Source: Legionella spiritensis
Lineage (GTDB): Bacteria; Pseudomonadota; Gammaproteobacteria; Legionellales; Legionellaceae
Assembly (NCBI RefSeq): GCF_900186965.1
Contig: NZ_LT906457.1
Span: 2,692,501-2,756,500, forward strand
Length of the DNA stretch: 64,000 nt
Direction: 5' to 3'
In this document: positions 26,628 to 38,617 of the stretch, in pieces
Layout of the letters: each line of letters begins with the position of its first letter
Numbering within the stretch: position 1 is the first letter of the stretch
Notes under the pieces: generated by a model
Database searches by the model: none
Told to the model about the DNA's origin: nothing
What the model saw: only the letters and a program-made list of their open reading frames with translations
Position numbers and translations under genes: made by a program

Positions 26628-29324
26628 ATGACGCAGATTTGGCATGACAAGAAGCCCCAAGAAGTGGCCAAAGTACTTAAAACTGATTTATCAGTTGGTT
26701 TAACTGAGGAAGAAGCACAACGACGCTTAGAAGAGTCTGGCGCTAATGTATTGGTCAAACAGAAAAAAACTTCTTTTTTGAAAATTCTTTTCCAACAAGT
26801 AAACAGTTTAGTCACCTGGGTTCTTTTAGGCGCTGTAGTCATTTCATTTTTACTGGGTGAAACAGTAGATGCCATTGCCATTTTTGCCATTGTGGTTTTG
26901 AATGCCATTATCGGCTTTATTATCGAATTTCGAGCTGATCGTGCTATTTTAGCGTTGCAAAAATTGGCTTCCCCTAAAGCCAGGGTAATTCGAGATGGTC
27001 ATGCCAAGATGATCACTACTTCCGATATCGTGCCAGGCGATACACTTCTTTTTGAAGGAGGAGATTTAGTTGCAGCTGATGCTCGTCTTTTTGAGCTGTC
27101 TTCCTTAAAGACGGAGGAAGCCCCTTTAACTGGTGAATCATTGCCTATTGAAAAAAATCTCAATTTTTGTAGTGTTGAAACGCCACTCGCTGAGCGCAAA
27201 AACATGGTCTTCATGGGAACATCCGTGGCGAATGGTACAGGTCGAGCCATTGTAGTCGCAACCGGAATGAGTACCGAAATGGGACGTATTGCGACCATGT
27301 TGAATGAGGCTTCTCGTGATGAATCCCCATTACAAAAAAGGCTTAATCAAGTGGGTTCCCGGCTATTATGGCTTTGTTTTTCCATTGTCCTACTGATTTT
27401 TATTCTCGGTTGGTTACGTCGTATTCCATTTTTTGAATTGTTTATGAGCTCCGTTAGTCTGGCTGTAGCGGCTATTCCTGAGGGTTTACCTGCGGTAGTC
27501 ACTGTTGCTTTAGCCTTAGGTGTTCAACGCATGGTACGACGTGCCGTCTTGGTAAGGCGTATGTCAGCTGTGGAAACTCTGGGTTGTCTCCAAGTCATTT
27601 GTACGGATAAAACAGGGACATTAACAGTGGGTGAGATGACAGCCCGTAAACTCATTACCGCAGAGGAAGTGTACAGTATCATAGGTGAAGGATATCACTT
27701 GGATGGTCATTTTATTTCCCAAGGTCAAGAGATCGATGTCGCCAAAGATAATTTGTTACAGACGGTTTTGAACGCCGCTTCGGCCTGTAACAATGCAGAA
27801 ATTCGTTTGCAACAAGGACAACTATCCACTGTTGGGGACCCAACAGAAATTGCACTATTAGTAGCGGCTGCCAAAGGAGATATTTGGCGTGATAATCTGG
27901 AGTCTACTTTTCCTCGCATACGAGAATTGCCTTTCGATTCAGAACGAAAACGTATGACGATAATCCGTAGGCAAGCAGAGCAACTGACTGCGTTTGTCAA
28001 AGGGGCACCTGAAGTGATTTTCGAACGCTGTACCCATATTTTGACTCGAGAGGGCATCAAAAAATTAACCCCTAAAGAACGTGCCCGTATGCAACAATCC
28101 TGTCAATTGATGGCCAGTGAAGCATTGCGAATCTTGGCCTTTGCACAACGGCAATGCGATTCTTCATTATTGGAGGCTGCTGATGAAGACATTGAAAATA
28201 ATCTTGTTTTACTGGGTCTTATAGGACTCCAGGATCCCCCGCATGCTGATGCAAAAGCTTCGGTTAAACGTTGTAAAATGGCGGGCATTAAACCAGTCAT
28301 GATCACAGGCGATCACCCCGATACCGCCAAAGCAATTGCCCGTGAATTAGAGATACTGAATCCAGGCGATCGCCTGATGACAGGTAATGAACTGGATAAG
28401 ATGTCTGATGATGACTTTATGGCGTGTGTGAAACAGATTGCTGTTTATGCTCGCGTTACTGCTGAACATAAATTAAAAATCGTTCGTGCCTGGAAAAAAC
28501 ACCACATGGTGGTTGCAATGACTGGTGATGGTGTAAACGATGCACCGGCACTAAAAGAAGCTTCGGTTGGTATCGCAATGGGGATCACAGGCACTGAAGT
28601 GACTAAAGAATCTGCCGATATTATTCTCATGGATAATAACTTTACCTCTATTGTCGATGGGATTGAAGAAGGGCGGACAATTTATGACAATATTGCCAAA
28701 ACGCTTGCTTATTTATTAGCGGGAAATATGGGTGAACTGCTGGTTGTTTTTAGTGTTCTTTTAATCGGCTGGCCCTTACCACTATTGCCAATCCAATTGT
28801 TATGGATAAATTTAGTGACGGATGGTTTGCCGGCATTGGCTTTGGCAACCGATCCGGCTGAGCCTGGAATTCTTAAACGTCCGCCAAGATCATCACAACA
28901 ATCTCTGATGAATTTTTCATTTTTCAAGCAGGTATCTTTTATAGGCTGTTTAACGGCACTAGTCACCTTTGGTGTGTTTGCTTACGAATATTTAGTCAAT
29001 GCGGATTTGATACAGGCTCAGGACGCTGCTTTTTCTGTTTTAGTGACTGCTGAACTATTGAGAGCCTTTGGGGCTCGTAGTCAAACCAAGACCATATGGC
29101 AAGTAGGATTGTTTTCAAACATGCGATTGTTTTTTATTGTCAGCATTAGTTTTGCGTTGCAGATTTTCATTCATCATGTCCCATTTTTGCAACGTCTTTT
29201 TGGAATTAGTCCAGTGACTTTATCTGAATGCTTGCTTTGGATAGTCTTAGGAACCATCCCTTTACTGATTTTGGAATTGAAGAAAATGATTACATTAAGG
29301 AATTCACCTCATGAGGCGTTTTAA
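26628..29324 (+). CDS. P2-type cation-transporting ATPase
   Basis: About 898 residues from the ATG at 26628, chosen because AAAGGA ends 8 nt before it; a closer ATG at 26619 has no room for a ribosome site. N-terminal cation-ATPase domain (about 1-75), actuator with LTGES (near 170), transmembrane-4 motif AIPEGLPAVV (near 285), phosphorylation motif CDKTGTLT (near 325), and the hinge MTGDGVNDAPALKEA (near 625). The PEGLP motif marks the Ca2+/Na+-type branch, not the CPC heavy-metal branch. The C-terminus overlaps the next gene by 14 bp. It probably exports a divalent or monovalent cation; the ion is not determined. Confidence 0.88.
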   Translation: MTQIWHDKKPQEVAKVLKTDLSVGLTEEEAQRRLEESGANVLVKQKKTSFLKILFQQVNSLVTWVLLGAVVISFLLGETVDAIAIFAIVVLNAIIGFIIEFRADRAILALQKLASPKARVIRDGHAKMITTSDIVPGDTLLFEGGDLVAADARLFELSSLKTEEAPLTGESLPIEKNLNFCSVETPLAERKNMVFMGTSVANGTGRAIVVATGMSTEMGRIATMLNEASRDESPLQKRLNQVGSRLLWLCFSIVLLIFILGWLRRIPFFELFMSSVSLAVAAIPEGLPAVVTVALALGVQRMVRRAVLVRRMSAVETLGCLQVICTDKTGTLTVGEMTARKLITAEEVYSIIGEGYHLDGHFISQGQEIDVAKDNLLQTVLNAASACNNAEIRLQQGQLSTVGDPTEIALLVAAAKGDIWRDNLESTFPRIRELPFDSERKRMTIIRRQAEQLTAFVKGAPEVIFERCTHILTREGIKKLTPKERARMQQSCQLMASEALRILAFAQRQCDSSLLEAADEDIENNLVLLGLIGLQDPPHADAKASVKRCKMAGIKPVMITGDHPDTAKAIARELEILNPGDRLMTGNELDKMSDDDFMACVKQIAVYARVTAEHKLKIVRAWKKHHMVVAMTGDGVNDAPALKEASVGIAMGITGTEVTKESADIILMDNNFTSIVDGIEEGRTIYDNIAKTLAYLLAGNMGELLVVFSVLLIGWPLPLLPIQLLWINLVTDGLPALALATDPAEPGILKRPPRSSQQSLMNFSFFKQVSFIGCLTALVTFGVFAYEYLVNADLIQAQDAAFSVLVTAELLRAFGARSQTKTIWQVGLFSNMRLFFIVSISFALQIFIHHVPFLQRLFGISPVTLSECLLWIVLGTIPLLILELKKMITLRNSPHEAF

Positions 29325-37715: not shown

Positions 37716-38617
37716 AGCCCATTTTATTTTCATTATTTGATGCTTCAGAAATCAGTAGACGTTTAAAAGAAGCGCTTCAAGTGGAGGTGGGTGATGTCAC
37801 GTTGCATCGTTTTCCAGATACAGAGTGGTACGTAAAAATTAATTCGGAAGTTAAAAATCGCAGCCTCATTGTAGTGGATAGCTTAAACCGACCCGATGGA
37901 AAAATACTGCCTTTGCTGTTTTTTGCTAAAACAGCTAAAGAATTAGGAGCTAAAAAAATCGGCTTGATTGCCCCTTATCTTCCGTATTTACGTCAAGATA
38001 TACGTTTTCATCAGGGTGAAGGGATTACGTCGCGTTATTTTGCTGAATTACTCTCCACTTCATTTGATTGGCTCATGACCATCGACCCCCATTTGCATCG
38101 TTATAACTCTTTAGATGAAGTCTACTCCATTCCTACTTTTGTCTTACATGCTACTTCAAATATATCGAGATGGATTACAAGCCACATTAATAAGCCAGTG
38201 CTTATTGGGCCCGATATGGAAAGTCAGCAATGGGTTGCCGACATTGCAGAAAAGGGAGATTTTCCCTATGTGATTTTGGAAAAAAAGAGACGGGGTGATA
38301 AAGAGGTGGCTATTTCAATGCCTACTATCCCGAAGCTTGAATTCTCTACCGCGGTATTAGTCGATGACATCATCTCCACAGCCAGAACCATGGTGGAAAC
38401 GGTGAAGCATTTGCAAGATTTAGGGGTTAAGTCAGTGACTTGCATTGGTGTGCATGCGCTTTTTGCAGAAGATGCCTATTCCCTATTATCAGAAATGGAA
38501 GGTACACAAATCATCACGTGTAACACGGTAAGTCATATAACCAATGCCATTGATGTGAGTGATTTGATTGTGGATGAGTTAGTAAAACACAATTTGGTAA
38601 AGGCTTTAAAAGGATAA
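37712..38617 (+). CDS. prs: Ribose-phosphate pyrophosphokinase (PRPP synthetase)
   Basis: 301 residues starting at a TTG that overlaps the preceding stop (TTGA), with GGGAG upstream. The family blocks are present: HRFPDTEWYVKINSEVKNRS, the LIAPYLPYLRQDIRFHQGEG flexible region, IDPHLHRYNSLDEV, and the PRPP-binding loop AVLVDDIISTARTMVETVKH. Length is slightly short of the roughly 310-residue class I enzymes, so it may be a variant lacking allosteric features. It ends the seven-gene coupled run from the cation ATPase, giving PRPP for nucleotide or NAD synthesis. Confidence 0.9.
   Translation: MKPILFSLFDASEISRRLKEALQVEVGDVTLHRFPDTEWYVKINSEVKNRSLIVVDSLNRPDGKILPLLFFAKTAKELGAKKIGLIAPYLPYLRQDIRFHQGEGITSRYFAELLSTSFDWLMTIDPHLHRYNSLDEVYSIPTFVLHATSNISRWITSHINKPVLIGPDMESQQWVADIAEKGDFPYVILEKKRRGDKEVAISMPTIPKLEFSTAVLVDDIISTARTMVETVKHLQDLGVKSVTCIGVHALFAEDAYSLLSEMEGTQIITCNTVSHITNAIDVSDLIVDELVKHNLVKALKG

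What the first reader, a model, noticed from the sequence alone, without database searches (positions are those of the whole stretch)
26628..38617. Copper-type efflux operon fused to an RNA/nucleotide-to-PRPP recycling cassette
Seen directly: cation ATPase, TolC-like, CusB-like and CusA-like genes run into a beta-CASP RNase-like gene, an AMP/thymidine-phosphorylase and PRPP synthetase. Start and stop codons overlap at five of the six junctions (14-bp, ATGA, ATGA, GTGA, TTGA); the adaptor-RND junction has a 26-bp gap. Known: beta-CASP proteins cut RNA, AMP phosphorylases make ribose-1,5-bisphosphate, and Prs makes PRPP. Inferred: under metal stress the operon exports metal while salvaging RNA-derived ribose phosphate. 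A functional link of these genes within one transcript would be a new system.
Basis: partly seen in the sequence, partly recalled or inferred. Interest (0 to 1): 0.72.

Follow-up and report, generated by a model that had tools for sequence, protein, structure and literature searches.

The report
Copper-pump operon carrying nucleotide-recycling genes
On a mobile DNA island of a Legionella-type bacterium, a copper pump is built into one conserved gene run with three RNA- and nucleotide-handling genes, which probably keep up a key nucleotide precursor (PRPP) when copper or lack of energy threatens it.

Summary
In detail: seven same-strand genes, overlapping at five of six junctions. The order recurs in 15 of 19 Legionella loci, and the 4-bp CusA/beta-CASP overlap in 14 of those 15, despite heavy synonymous divergence. 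CusA keeps three key methionines of E. coli CusA (Cu/Ag type); the first gene is a Ca-type ATPase, not a copper pump.

The three nucleotide genes are an older, wider cassette. The phosphorylase has the AMP-phosphorylase signature, not that of thymidine phosphorylase. Its partner is a Prs paralogue that keeps ribose-5-phosphate and ATP residues, has lost class I allosteric residues and has new invariant ones. The two co-occur almost perfectly (75 and 80 of 369 genomes, 71 shared). Four natural fusions of the phosphorylase to PhnN suggest its product is ribose-1,5-bisphosphate and the end point PRPP.

Copper genes go with the mobile clade of the phosphorylase (10 of 31 genome loci against 4 of 69). 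In two marine plasmids the Prs paralogue overlaps a copper-ATPase gene by 4 bp. Published work: Cu(I) inhibits Prs; a chromosomal trio is induced by low oxygen.

Best reading: an NMP-to-PRPP maintenance module recruited into copper islands. The metal benefit is inferred, not shown.

The parts
26619..29324 (+). P2A (Ca-type) cation ATPase, 901 aa, first gene of the run; ion unknown
   Evidence: best NCBIfam hits are Ca-ATPase models, 675.9 bits against a cut-off of 798.3 for the best; PEGLP, NLVTD, no CPC
29311..30555 (+). TolC-like outer membrane factor (CusC position)
   Evidence: PF02321 149.6 bits; 14-bp overlap with the ATPase gene
30552..31676 (+). CusB-like periplasmic adaptor
   Evidence: PF16576 278 bits; TIGR01730 above its cut-off, CusB subfamily NF007303 below its cut-off
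31703..34846 (+). CusA-type RND pump
   Evidence: TIGR00914 1139 bits against 701; methionines aligned to M573, M623, M672 of E. coli CusA, 494 of 1039 residues identical
34843..36204 (+). MBL-fold beta-CASP RNase-like protein
   Evidence: PF10996, PF07521, PF00753; THAHIDH motif; matches PDB chains of ribonuclease TTHA0252 and Cas14
36201..37715 (+). AMP-phosphorylase-like NMP phosphorylase ('thymidine phosphorylase family')
   Evidence: NF003338 704.3 bits against 434; KTSSRAITS-AGTAD signature
37712..38617 (+). Prs paralogue of family PRK07199/NF005537
   Evidence: 417.2 bits against 322; residue comparison with E. coli and housekeeping Prs
38868..41087 (+). P1B copper-type ATPase (CopA-like) behind the run
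   Evidence: TIGR01511 614 bits against 397; CPC and MALSS motifs
43081..48571 (+). second TolC/adaptor/RND set, of another metal type
   Evidence: ORFs; its RND lacks the three methionines
49315..54432 (+). accessory metabolic genes: PhaC, MaoC-phosphotransacetylase, acetate kinase, enoyl-ACP-reductase-like SDR
   Evidence: Pfam
20474..22357 (+). relaxase (MobA/VirD2-like), mobility gene of the island
   Evidence: PF03432, PF22863

Best explanation
The seven genes behave as one operon of a mobile metal island. The first part exports Cu(I)/Ag(I) by CusA-type efflux, behind a Ca-type ATPase of unknown ion. The last three genes are a mobile PRPP-maintenance cassette: the beta-CASP RNase trims RNA towards 5'-NMPs; the phosphorylase splits NMPs with phosphate into base and ribose-1,5-bisphosphate; the Prs paralogue makes PRPP without the class I ADP brake, and the AMP it releases is a substrate of the phosphorylase encoded next to it. 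In copper islands this would keep PRPP available while Cu(I) inactivates the housekeeping Prs; elsewhere the same core serves energy shortage such as low oxygen. Shown here: order, conserved junctions, family membership, residue patterns, co-occurrence, fusions. From papers: Cu(I) inhibits S. aureus Prs; a Bradyrhizobium trio is induced by low oxygen. Inferred: the reactions of these proteins, cotranscription, and the benefit under copper.
For: Order kept in 15 of 19 Legionella loci and the CusA/beta-CASP overlap in 14 of those 15; dN/dS 0.037-0.204 for six genes in five divergent copies. AMP-phosphorylase signature across 143 family members. Paralogue and phosphorylase: 80 and 75 of 369 genomes, 71 shared; a Prs of canonical score elsewhere in 78 of 80 phosphorylase genomes, so the paralogue is extra. 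R5P and ATP residues kept, allosteric residues lost (residue roles from PMC9232217, passages). Four PhnN-phosphorylase fusions, two of them next to nadC. Copper genes near 10 of 31 clade-M against 4 of 69 clade-C genome loci, p = 0.001, and 16 of 19 against 0 of 4 plasmid loci. Coupling to metal pumps in other lineages: the paralogue overlaps an annotated copper-ATPase gene by 4 bp in Roseovarius and Roseibium, follows a heavy-metal ATPase by 5 bp in Agrobacterium and 32 bp in Paracoccus, and a Criblamydia plasmid has CusB, CusA, cation ATPase and the trio in one same-strand run with three metabolic genes between. Cu(I) at 2 uM cuts purified S. aureus Prs activity 7-fold (PMC10249872, section 12).
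Against: Copper genes lie near only 14 of 100 genome loci (1 of 20 control loci). On independent pairs of the tree beta-CASP and copper do not correlate (12 pairs, median p 0.45; genome sample 9 pairs, p 1). The known inducer of a chromosomal trio is low oxygen, not metal. The phosphorylase has a Cys in its phosphate loop in 129 of 143, and cysteine loss in paralogues near copper genes is not significant (p = 0.06), so copper-proof enzymes are not indicated. No PhnN and no RuBisCO at the thresholds used in the window's genome, so the fate of R15P there is open. TIGR03327 (AMP phosphorylase) is missed, 506 against 535 bits.
Confidence: 0.42

Rival explanations
1. Energy-crisis salvage, not metal defence. 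When respiration fails, RNA is broken down and NMP ribose is saved without spending ATP; the cassette rides on metal islands because those islands also carry fermentation and ATP-saving genes (acetate kinase, phosphotransacetylase, phosphoketolase, alternative F1F0, PPK2).
For: Bradyrhizobium bll3115-bll3117 (MBL, Prs, phosphorylase) rise together at 0.5% oxygen: protein log2 change 2.9, 4.4, 2.1, transcript 15.4-, 7.7-, 5.1-fold (PMC6515984, passages). Acetate kinase, phosphotransacetylase and PhaC lie in the window island; phosphoketolase or acetate kinase near 6 of 19 clade-M plasmid loci. Most chromosomal copies have no copper gene near: 86 of 100 loci.
Against: Conserved or tight junctions with copper or heavy-metal pump genes in Legionella, Roseovarius, Roseibium and Agrobacterium.
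Confidence: 0.32
2. The Prs paralogue is not a PRPP synthase from R5P but turns the phosphorylase's product R15P into PRPP (or does another reaction at C1), the same step as PhnN, so that the trio is a complete RNA/NMP-to-PRPP shunt.
For: Near-obligate pairing with the phosphorylase; the four PhnN-fused phosphorylases have no paralogue in their regions, as if one replaced the other; new invariant residues next to both Mg ligands: H and R (86 of 86) at E. coli positions 133-134, E (86) and S (81) at 172-173, W (85) at 176; R99, which contacts a nucleotide phosphate in E. coli Prs, is not kept.
Against: All the R5P contacts named in PMC9232217 (D170, D220, D221, T225 as T or S, T228) are kept; position 133 is an allosteric-site residue in E. 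coli, so part of the change may be regulatory; no Prs-fold enzyme is known to me to phosphorylate R15P (recalled).
Confidence: 0.13
3. Hitch-hiking: pump genes and nucleotide genes were joined once in a mobile element and spread together without a functional tie.
For: In several other lineages the pump genes and the trio are close but divergent or on different strands (L. fallonii; L161). The Legionella loci need only 3 label changes on the tree, so the seven-gene run may be one event.
Against: The junction persists while the ATPase falls to 73% identity and dS is 0.90 or more in 24 of 30 comparisons; different tight joins to metal pumps in other bacteria.
Confidence: 0.1

Closest known systems
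E. coli cusCFBA copper/silver efflux operon
   Same: outer membrane factor, adaptor and RND pump; three key methionines of CusA (their role is recalled)
   Different: no CusF in the run; a P2A ATPase in front and three nucleotide genes behind, overlapping cusA by 4 bp
Archaeal AMP phosphorylase (T. kodakarensis; PDB 4ga4-4ga6, identification of these entries recalled)
   Same: signature loop and 189 of 441 aligned residues; the known enzyme makes R15P from NMPs (PMC8376864, passages)
   Different: bacterial subfamily; just under the TIGR03327 cut-off; partner is a Prs paralogue, and the window's genome has no RuBisCO
Class I PRPP synthase (E. coli Prs)
   Same: R5P and ATP residues, catalytic H131, K194, R196
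   Different: allosteric R102, R105 and the C-terminal segment lost; own invariants H-R and E-S-x-Q-W
PhnN ribose-1,5-bisphosphokinase
   Same: found fused to the same phosphorylase family in four loci
   Different: different fold family from Prs (recalled); not found above threshold in the window's genome
Bradyrhizobium diazoefficiens bll3115-bll3117
   Same: the same three annotated products side by side, induced together (PMC6515984, passages)
   Different: no pump genes named beside them; responds to low oxygen; its proteins were not aligned here, but the Bradyrhizobium plasmid locus L244 with the same trio falls in clade C

Membership tests
Cu(I)/Ag(I) HME-RND efflux (CusCBA) | CusA/CzcA family score above the curated cut-off | tested here: met
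   TIGR00914 1139.2 against 701.45 bits
Cu(I)/Ag(I) HME-RND efflux (CusCBA) | three periplasmic methionines M573, M623, M672 (role recalled) | tested here: met
   aligned in the window CusA; absent in the second RND of the island
Cu(I)/Ag(I) HME-RND efflux (CusCBA) | exports Cu or Ag | not testable with these tools
   needs transport or growth assays
AMP phosphorylase (TIGR03327) | score above the curated cut-off | tested here: not met
   506.3 against 535 bits; the broader NF003338 and TIGR02645 are met
AMP phosphorylase (TIGR03327) | AMPpase-type loop instead of the thymidine-phosphorylase loop | tested here: met
   KTSSRAITS-AGTAD in the window, matching the archaeal chain and not DeoA; near-invariant in 143 proteins
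AMP phosphorylase (TIGR03327) | phosphorolysis of 5'-NMPs to R15P | not testable with these tools
   needs an enzyme assay; supported only by PhnN fusions of relatives
Class I PRPP synthase | R5P and ATP contact residues | tested here: met
   D170, D220, D221, T225, T228, F35, D37, H131, K194, R196 equivalents kept in the window
Class I PRPP synthase | allosteric (ADP/Pi) residues | tested here: not met
   R102, R105 and S149 changed, residues 308-313 not conserved or missing, in 86 paralogues compared with 20 housekeeping Prs
Beta-CASP RNase | MBL, beta-CASP and RMMBL domains with HxHxDH | tested here: met
   Pfam domains; THAHIDH
Type VII CRISPR Cas14 (beta-CASP) | score above the NF045584 cut-off | tested here: not met
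   405.6 against 800 bits, 429 of 612 positions covered
Copper P1B ATPase (gene 26619-29324) | CPC motif and copper-family score | tested here: not met
   no CPC; TIGR01511 164.2 against 397 bits

The most novel reading that the evidence does not exclude
The Prs paralogue is a new enzyme that converts ribose-1,5-bisphosphate to PRPP, so the trio is a self-contained RNA/NMP-to-PRPP shunt; mobile elements have welded it to copper export because Cu(I) poisons the normal Prs step. This would make target bypass a principle of copper resistance.
Probability: 0.13. Interest if true: 0.85.

Novelty: new variant of a known kind. Interest (0 to 1): 0.6.

Why it matters
Copper-resistance islands are usually read as pumps, oxidases and sensors. 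A conserved, mobile nucleotide cassette among them suggests that they also carry spare or bypass enzymes for metabolism that copper hits, in line with the 2023 finding that Cu(I) inhibits Prs. It also gives bacterial 'thymidine phosphorylase family' genes (75 of 369 class-sample genomes) a testable job: NMP phosphorolysis coupled to PRPP. The key tests are simple enzyme assays on proteins of harmless bacteria.

Tried and rejected
Promoter search for or against cotranscription: 21 promoter-like sites against 29.7 expected from shuffles, so it says nothing; terminator-like sites 19 against 11.5 (sd 3.1), several inside genes, not followed up. Copper-proofing by cysteine loss in the Prs paralogue: mean 3.1 (12 loci) against 4.2 (74 loci), p = 0.06, dropped. 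PhnN as the general consumer of R15P: above cut-off in 6 of 75 phosphorylase genomes and 7 of 294 others, p = 0.03, too rare. RuBisCO as consumer: in 49 of 75 against 126 of 294, p = 0.0007, not corrected for kinship; it may apply to chromosomal copies, but the window's genome has none. R15P isomerase was not searched. Beta-CASP and copper as a repeatedly evolved pair: not supported. Copper near beta-CASP-positive against -negative genome loci: 7 of 32 against 7 of 68, p = 0.13; the difference appears only between the two phosphorylase clades. Cas14: cut-off not met.

Paper searches that found no description of this gene combination: no paper; no paper; listings, with passages of PMC6315756, PMC7760498 and PMC6515984 looked at; open-licence PMC library only. 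PMC6515984 lists the three Bradyrhizobium genes in a table. The 2026 Prs survey PMC13252144 (abstract, outline, passages, part 1 of section 6) holds 'phosphorylase' and 'copper' 0 times in its main text; to which of its classes the paralogue belongs was not tested.

Limits: of 117 distinct phosphorylase places (counted by hand) 100 were fetched; left out were the window's own copy and 16 others, mostly on short contigs or partial. The copper panel takes its non-window queries from plasmid loci L003-L013, so plasmid counts are favoured; 11 of the 23 plasmid loci were picked by me from the best hits and 12 from an evenly spread list of 50. L236 and L241 carry no annotation. The tree is a FastTree tree. 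In some searches L157 counts as beta-CASP-negative because its beta-CASP part is fused. Control loci: 20, not the 60 planned; notebook entry 2 says 60 and is wrong there.
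Full report
Observation. The seven genes, their strand and their junctions are as described. The operon's CusA carries methionines at the positions of M573, M623 and M672 of E. coli CusA (their role is recalled), so 'copper-type' is right for the pump; the second RND of the island (45356-48571) lacks them. The first gene is a P2A, Ca-type ATPase. The window lies in a 3.35-Mb single-contig genome; the 19 loci that the genome scan returned for its phosphorylase are all from Legionella, so a Legionella-type host is inferred. 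A relaxase gene lies at 20474-22357.

Is the run real? Of the 19 Legionella loci, 15 keep all seven genes in this order; L025, L026, L028 and L032 do not. The CusA/beta-CASP overlap of 4 bp is kept in 14 of the 15. In five divergent copies, dN/dS is 0.037 to 0.204 for six genes (TolC not computed), and dS is 0.90 or more in 24 of 30 comparisons. A junction kept under that much change points to selection on the arrangement; it does not prove a shared transcript.

What the phosphorylase is. It passes NF003338 and TIGR02645 and narrowly misses the AMP-phosphorylase equivalog. Its nearest solved chains are 4ga4-4ga6, which I recall to be the T. kodakarensis AMP phosphorylase; 189 of 441 aligned residues are identical, against 114 of 407 for E. 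coli DeoA, and the loop KTSSRAITS-AGTAD, near-invariant in 143 family members, matches the archaeal chain and not DeoA. The archaeal enzyme turns NMP and phosphate into base and R15P (PMC8376864, passages).

Its partner. In 369 genomes sampled from the class, the phosphorylase is in 75, the Prs paralogue NF005537 in 80, both in 71. In 100 fetched loci a Prs-type gene is in the region in 94 and directly downstream on the same strand in 92. Of 80 phosphorylase genomes searched, all but G295 and G026 also hold a Prs of canonical score, so the paralogue is an extra enzyme. Compared with E. coli Prs and 20 housekeeping Prs, 86 paralogues keep the R5P and ATP residues but not the allosteric ones; they have H and R (86 of 86 each) at E. 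coli positions 133-134, E (86) and S (81) at 172-173 and W (85) at 176. The roles of D170, H131, E133, R99 and R102 are from PMC9232217 (passages).

Fusions. L157 encodes the beta-CASP protein and the phosphorylase as one 963-aa protein. L208, L209, L210 and L234 encode PhnN fused to the phosphorylase, each above the PhnN and the NF003338 cut-offs. None of the four has a Prs paralogue in its region, and in L208 and L234 a nadC gene lies immediately upstream. PhnN is the PRPP-forming ribose-1,5-bisphosphokinase; NadC consumes PRPP (recalled). This is the best evidence that the phosphorylase makes R15P and that the end product is PRPP. PhnN is nevertheless rare among phosphorylase genomes (6 of 75 above cut-off) and was not found in the window's genome.

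How far copper goes with it. A tree of 143 phosphorylases splits into two deep clades. Clade M (70 rows) holds the window, the 19 Legionella loci, 19 of 23 plasmid loci and 31 of 100 genome loci; clade C (73 rows) holds 69 genome loci, 4 plasmid loci and the PhnN fusions. Copper markers within the fetched regions: 10 of 31 (M) against 4 of 69 (C) genome loci, p = 0.001; 9 of 30 without the Legionella-type locus L153, p = 0.002; plasmid loci 16 of 19 against 0 of 4. Control regions around the housekeeping prs: 1 of 20. The beta-CASP gene is likewise commoner in clade M: 21 of 31, 22 with the L157 fusion, against 11 of 69. Independent pairs on the tree show no separate beta-CASP/copper correlation. 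So copper belongs to the mobile clade; it is not the general setting of the family.

Other joins to metal pumps. While checking this report against the annotation tables I found that the Prs paralogue overlaps an annotated copper-ATPase gene by 4 bp in Roseovarius mucosus and Roseibium. In Agrobacterium it starts 5 bp, and in Paracoccus 32 bp, behind a heavy-metal ATPase gene. A Criblamydia plasmid has CusB, CusA, a cation ATPase, phosphoketolase, glycogen phosphorylase, an ATP-cone protein and the trio in one same-strand run with gaps of at most 35 bp from CusA on. These joins differ from the Legionella one, which weakens the single-accident rival; I lowered its odds for that reason. In L. 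fallonii and L161 the pump genes and the trio point in different directions, and the Bradyrhizobium, Azospirillum, Sphingobium TomTYG43 and Pacificitalea loci have no copper marker in the scan.

Expression evidence from the literature. In B. diazoefficiens the adjacent genes bll3115 (MBL), bll3116 (Prs) and bll3117 (phosphorylase) rise together at 0.5% oxygen in protein and transcript, are not marked as direct FixK2 or NifA targets, and are not marked as changed in bacteroids (PMC6515984, passages). This ties a chromosomal trio to oxygen, not metal.

Why a copper island might want it. In S. aureus copper lowers PRPP to about half; 2 uM Cu(I) reduces purified Prs activity 7-fold and at 5 uM none is detected, while 5 uM Cu(II) has no significant effect (PMC10249872, section 12); raising prs expression lowers copper sensitivity (abstract). 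An extra PRPP source is therefore plausible cargo. Low oxygen and copper may both strain energy supply, so the two settings need not conflict.

Verdict. The most novel reading, an R15P-to-PRPP activity of the Prs paralogue, is open and cheap to test.

Noticed in passing
L234:9272-11398, L208:8683-10806, L209:9292-11817, L210:9331-11637: Natural fusions of PhnN (ribose-1,5-bisphosphokinase) with the NMP phosphorylase, two of them directly behind nadC; a possible one-protein NMP-to-PRPP enzyme.
   Followed up: partly
window 37712-38617 against L014, L019, L030: The Prs gene is only 94-95% identical at the protein level where the phosphorylase before it is 100% identical; suggests a recombination boundary there, with different downstream genes.
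   Followed up: no
window 49315-54432: PhaC, MaoC-phosphotransacetylase, acetate kinase and an enoyl-reductase-like gene ride on the same island; similar accessory genes sit beside the trio on other plasmids.
   Followed up: partly
window 24920-25680: Transposase-like gene split over two overlapping frames (24993-25268, 25261-25656), bounded by an inverted tagtgtccctaaac repeat; IS5-like by eye only.
   Followed up: no
G000:C1:1794009-1794968: A third Prs homologue (265 bits to TIGR01251) besides the housekeeping and the cassette copies.
   Followed up: no
143 phosphorylases, DeoA position 86: A cysteine replaces the serine of DeoA's phosphate loop in 129 of 143; a possible redox- or metal-sensitive site.
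   Followed up: no
window 34843-36204: The beta-CASP protein scores 405.6 bits on the type VII CRISPR Cas14 model, half its cut-off, and its best PDB match is Cas14; annotation pipelines could confuse the two.
   Followed up: no
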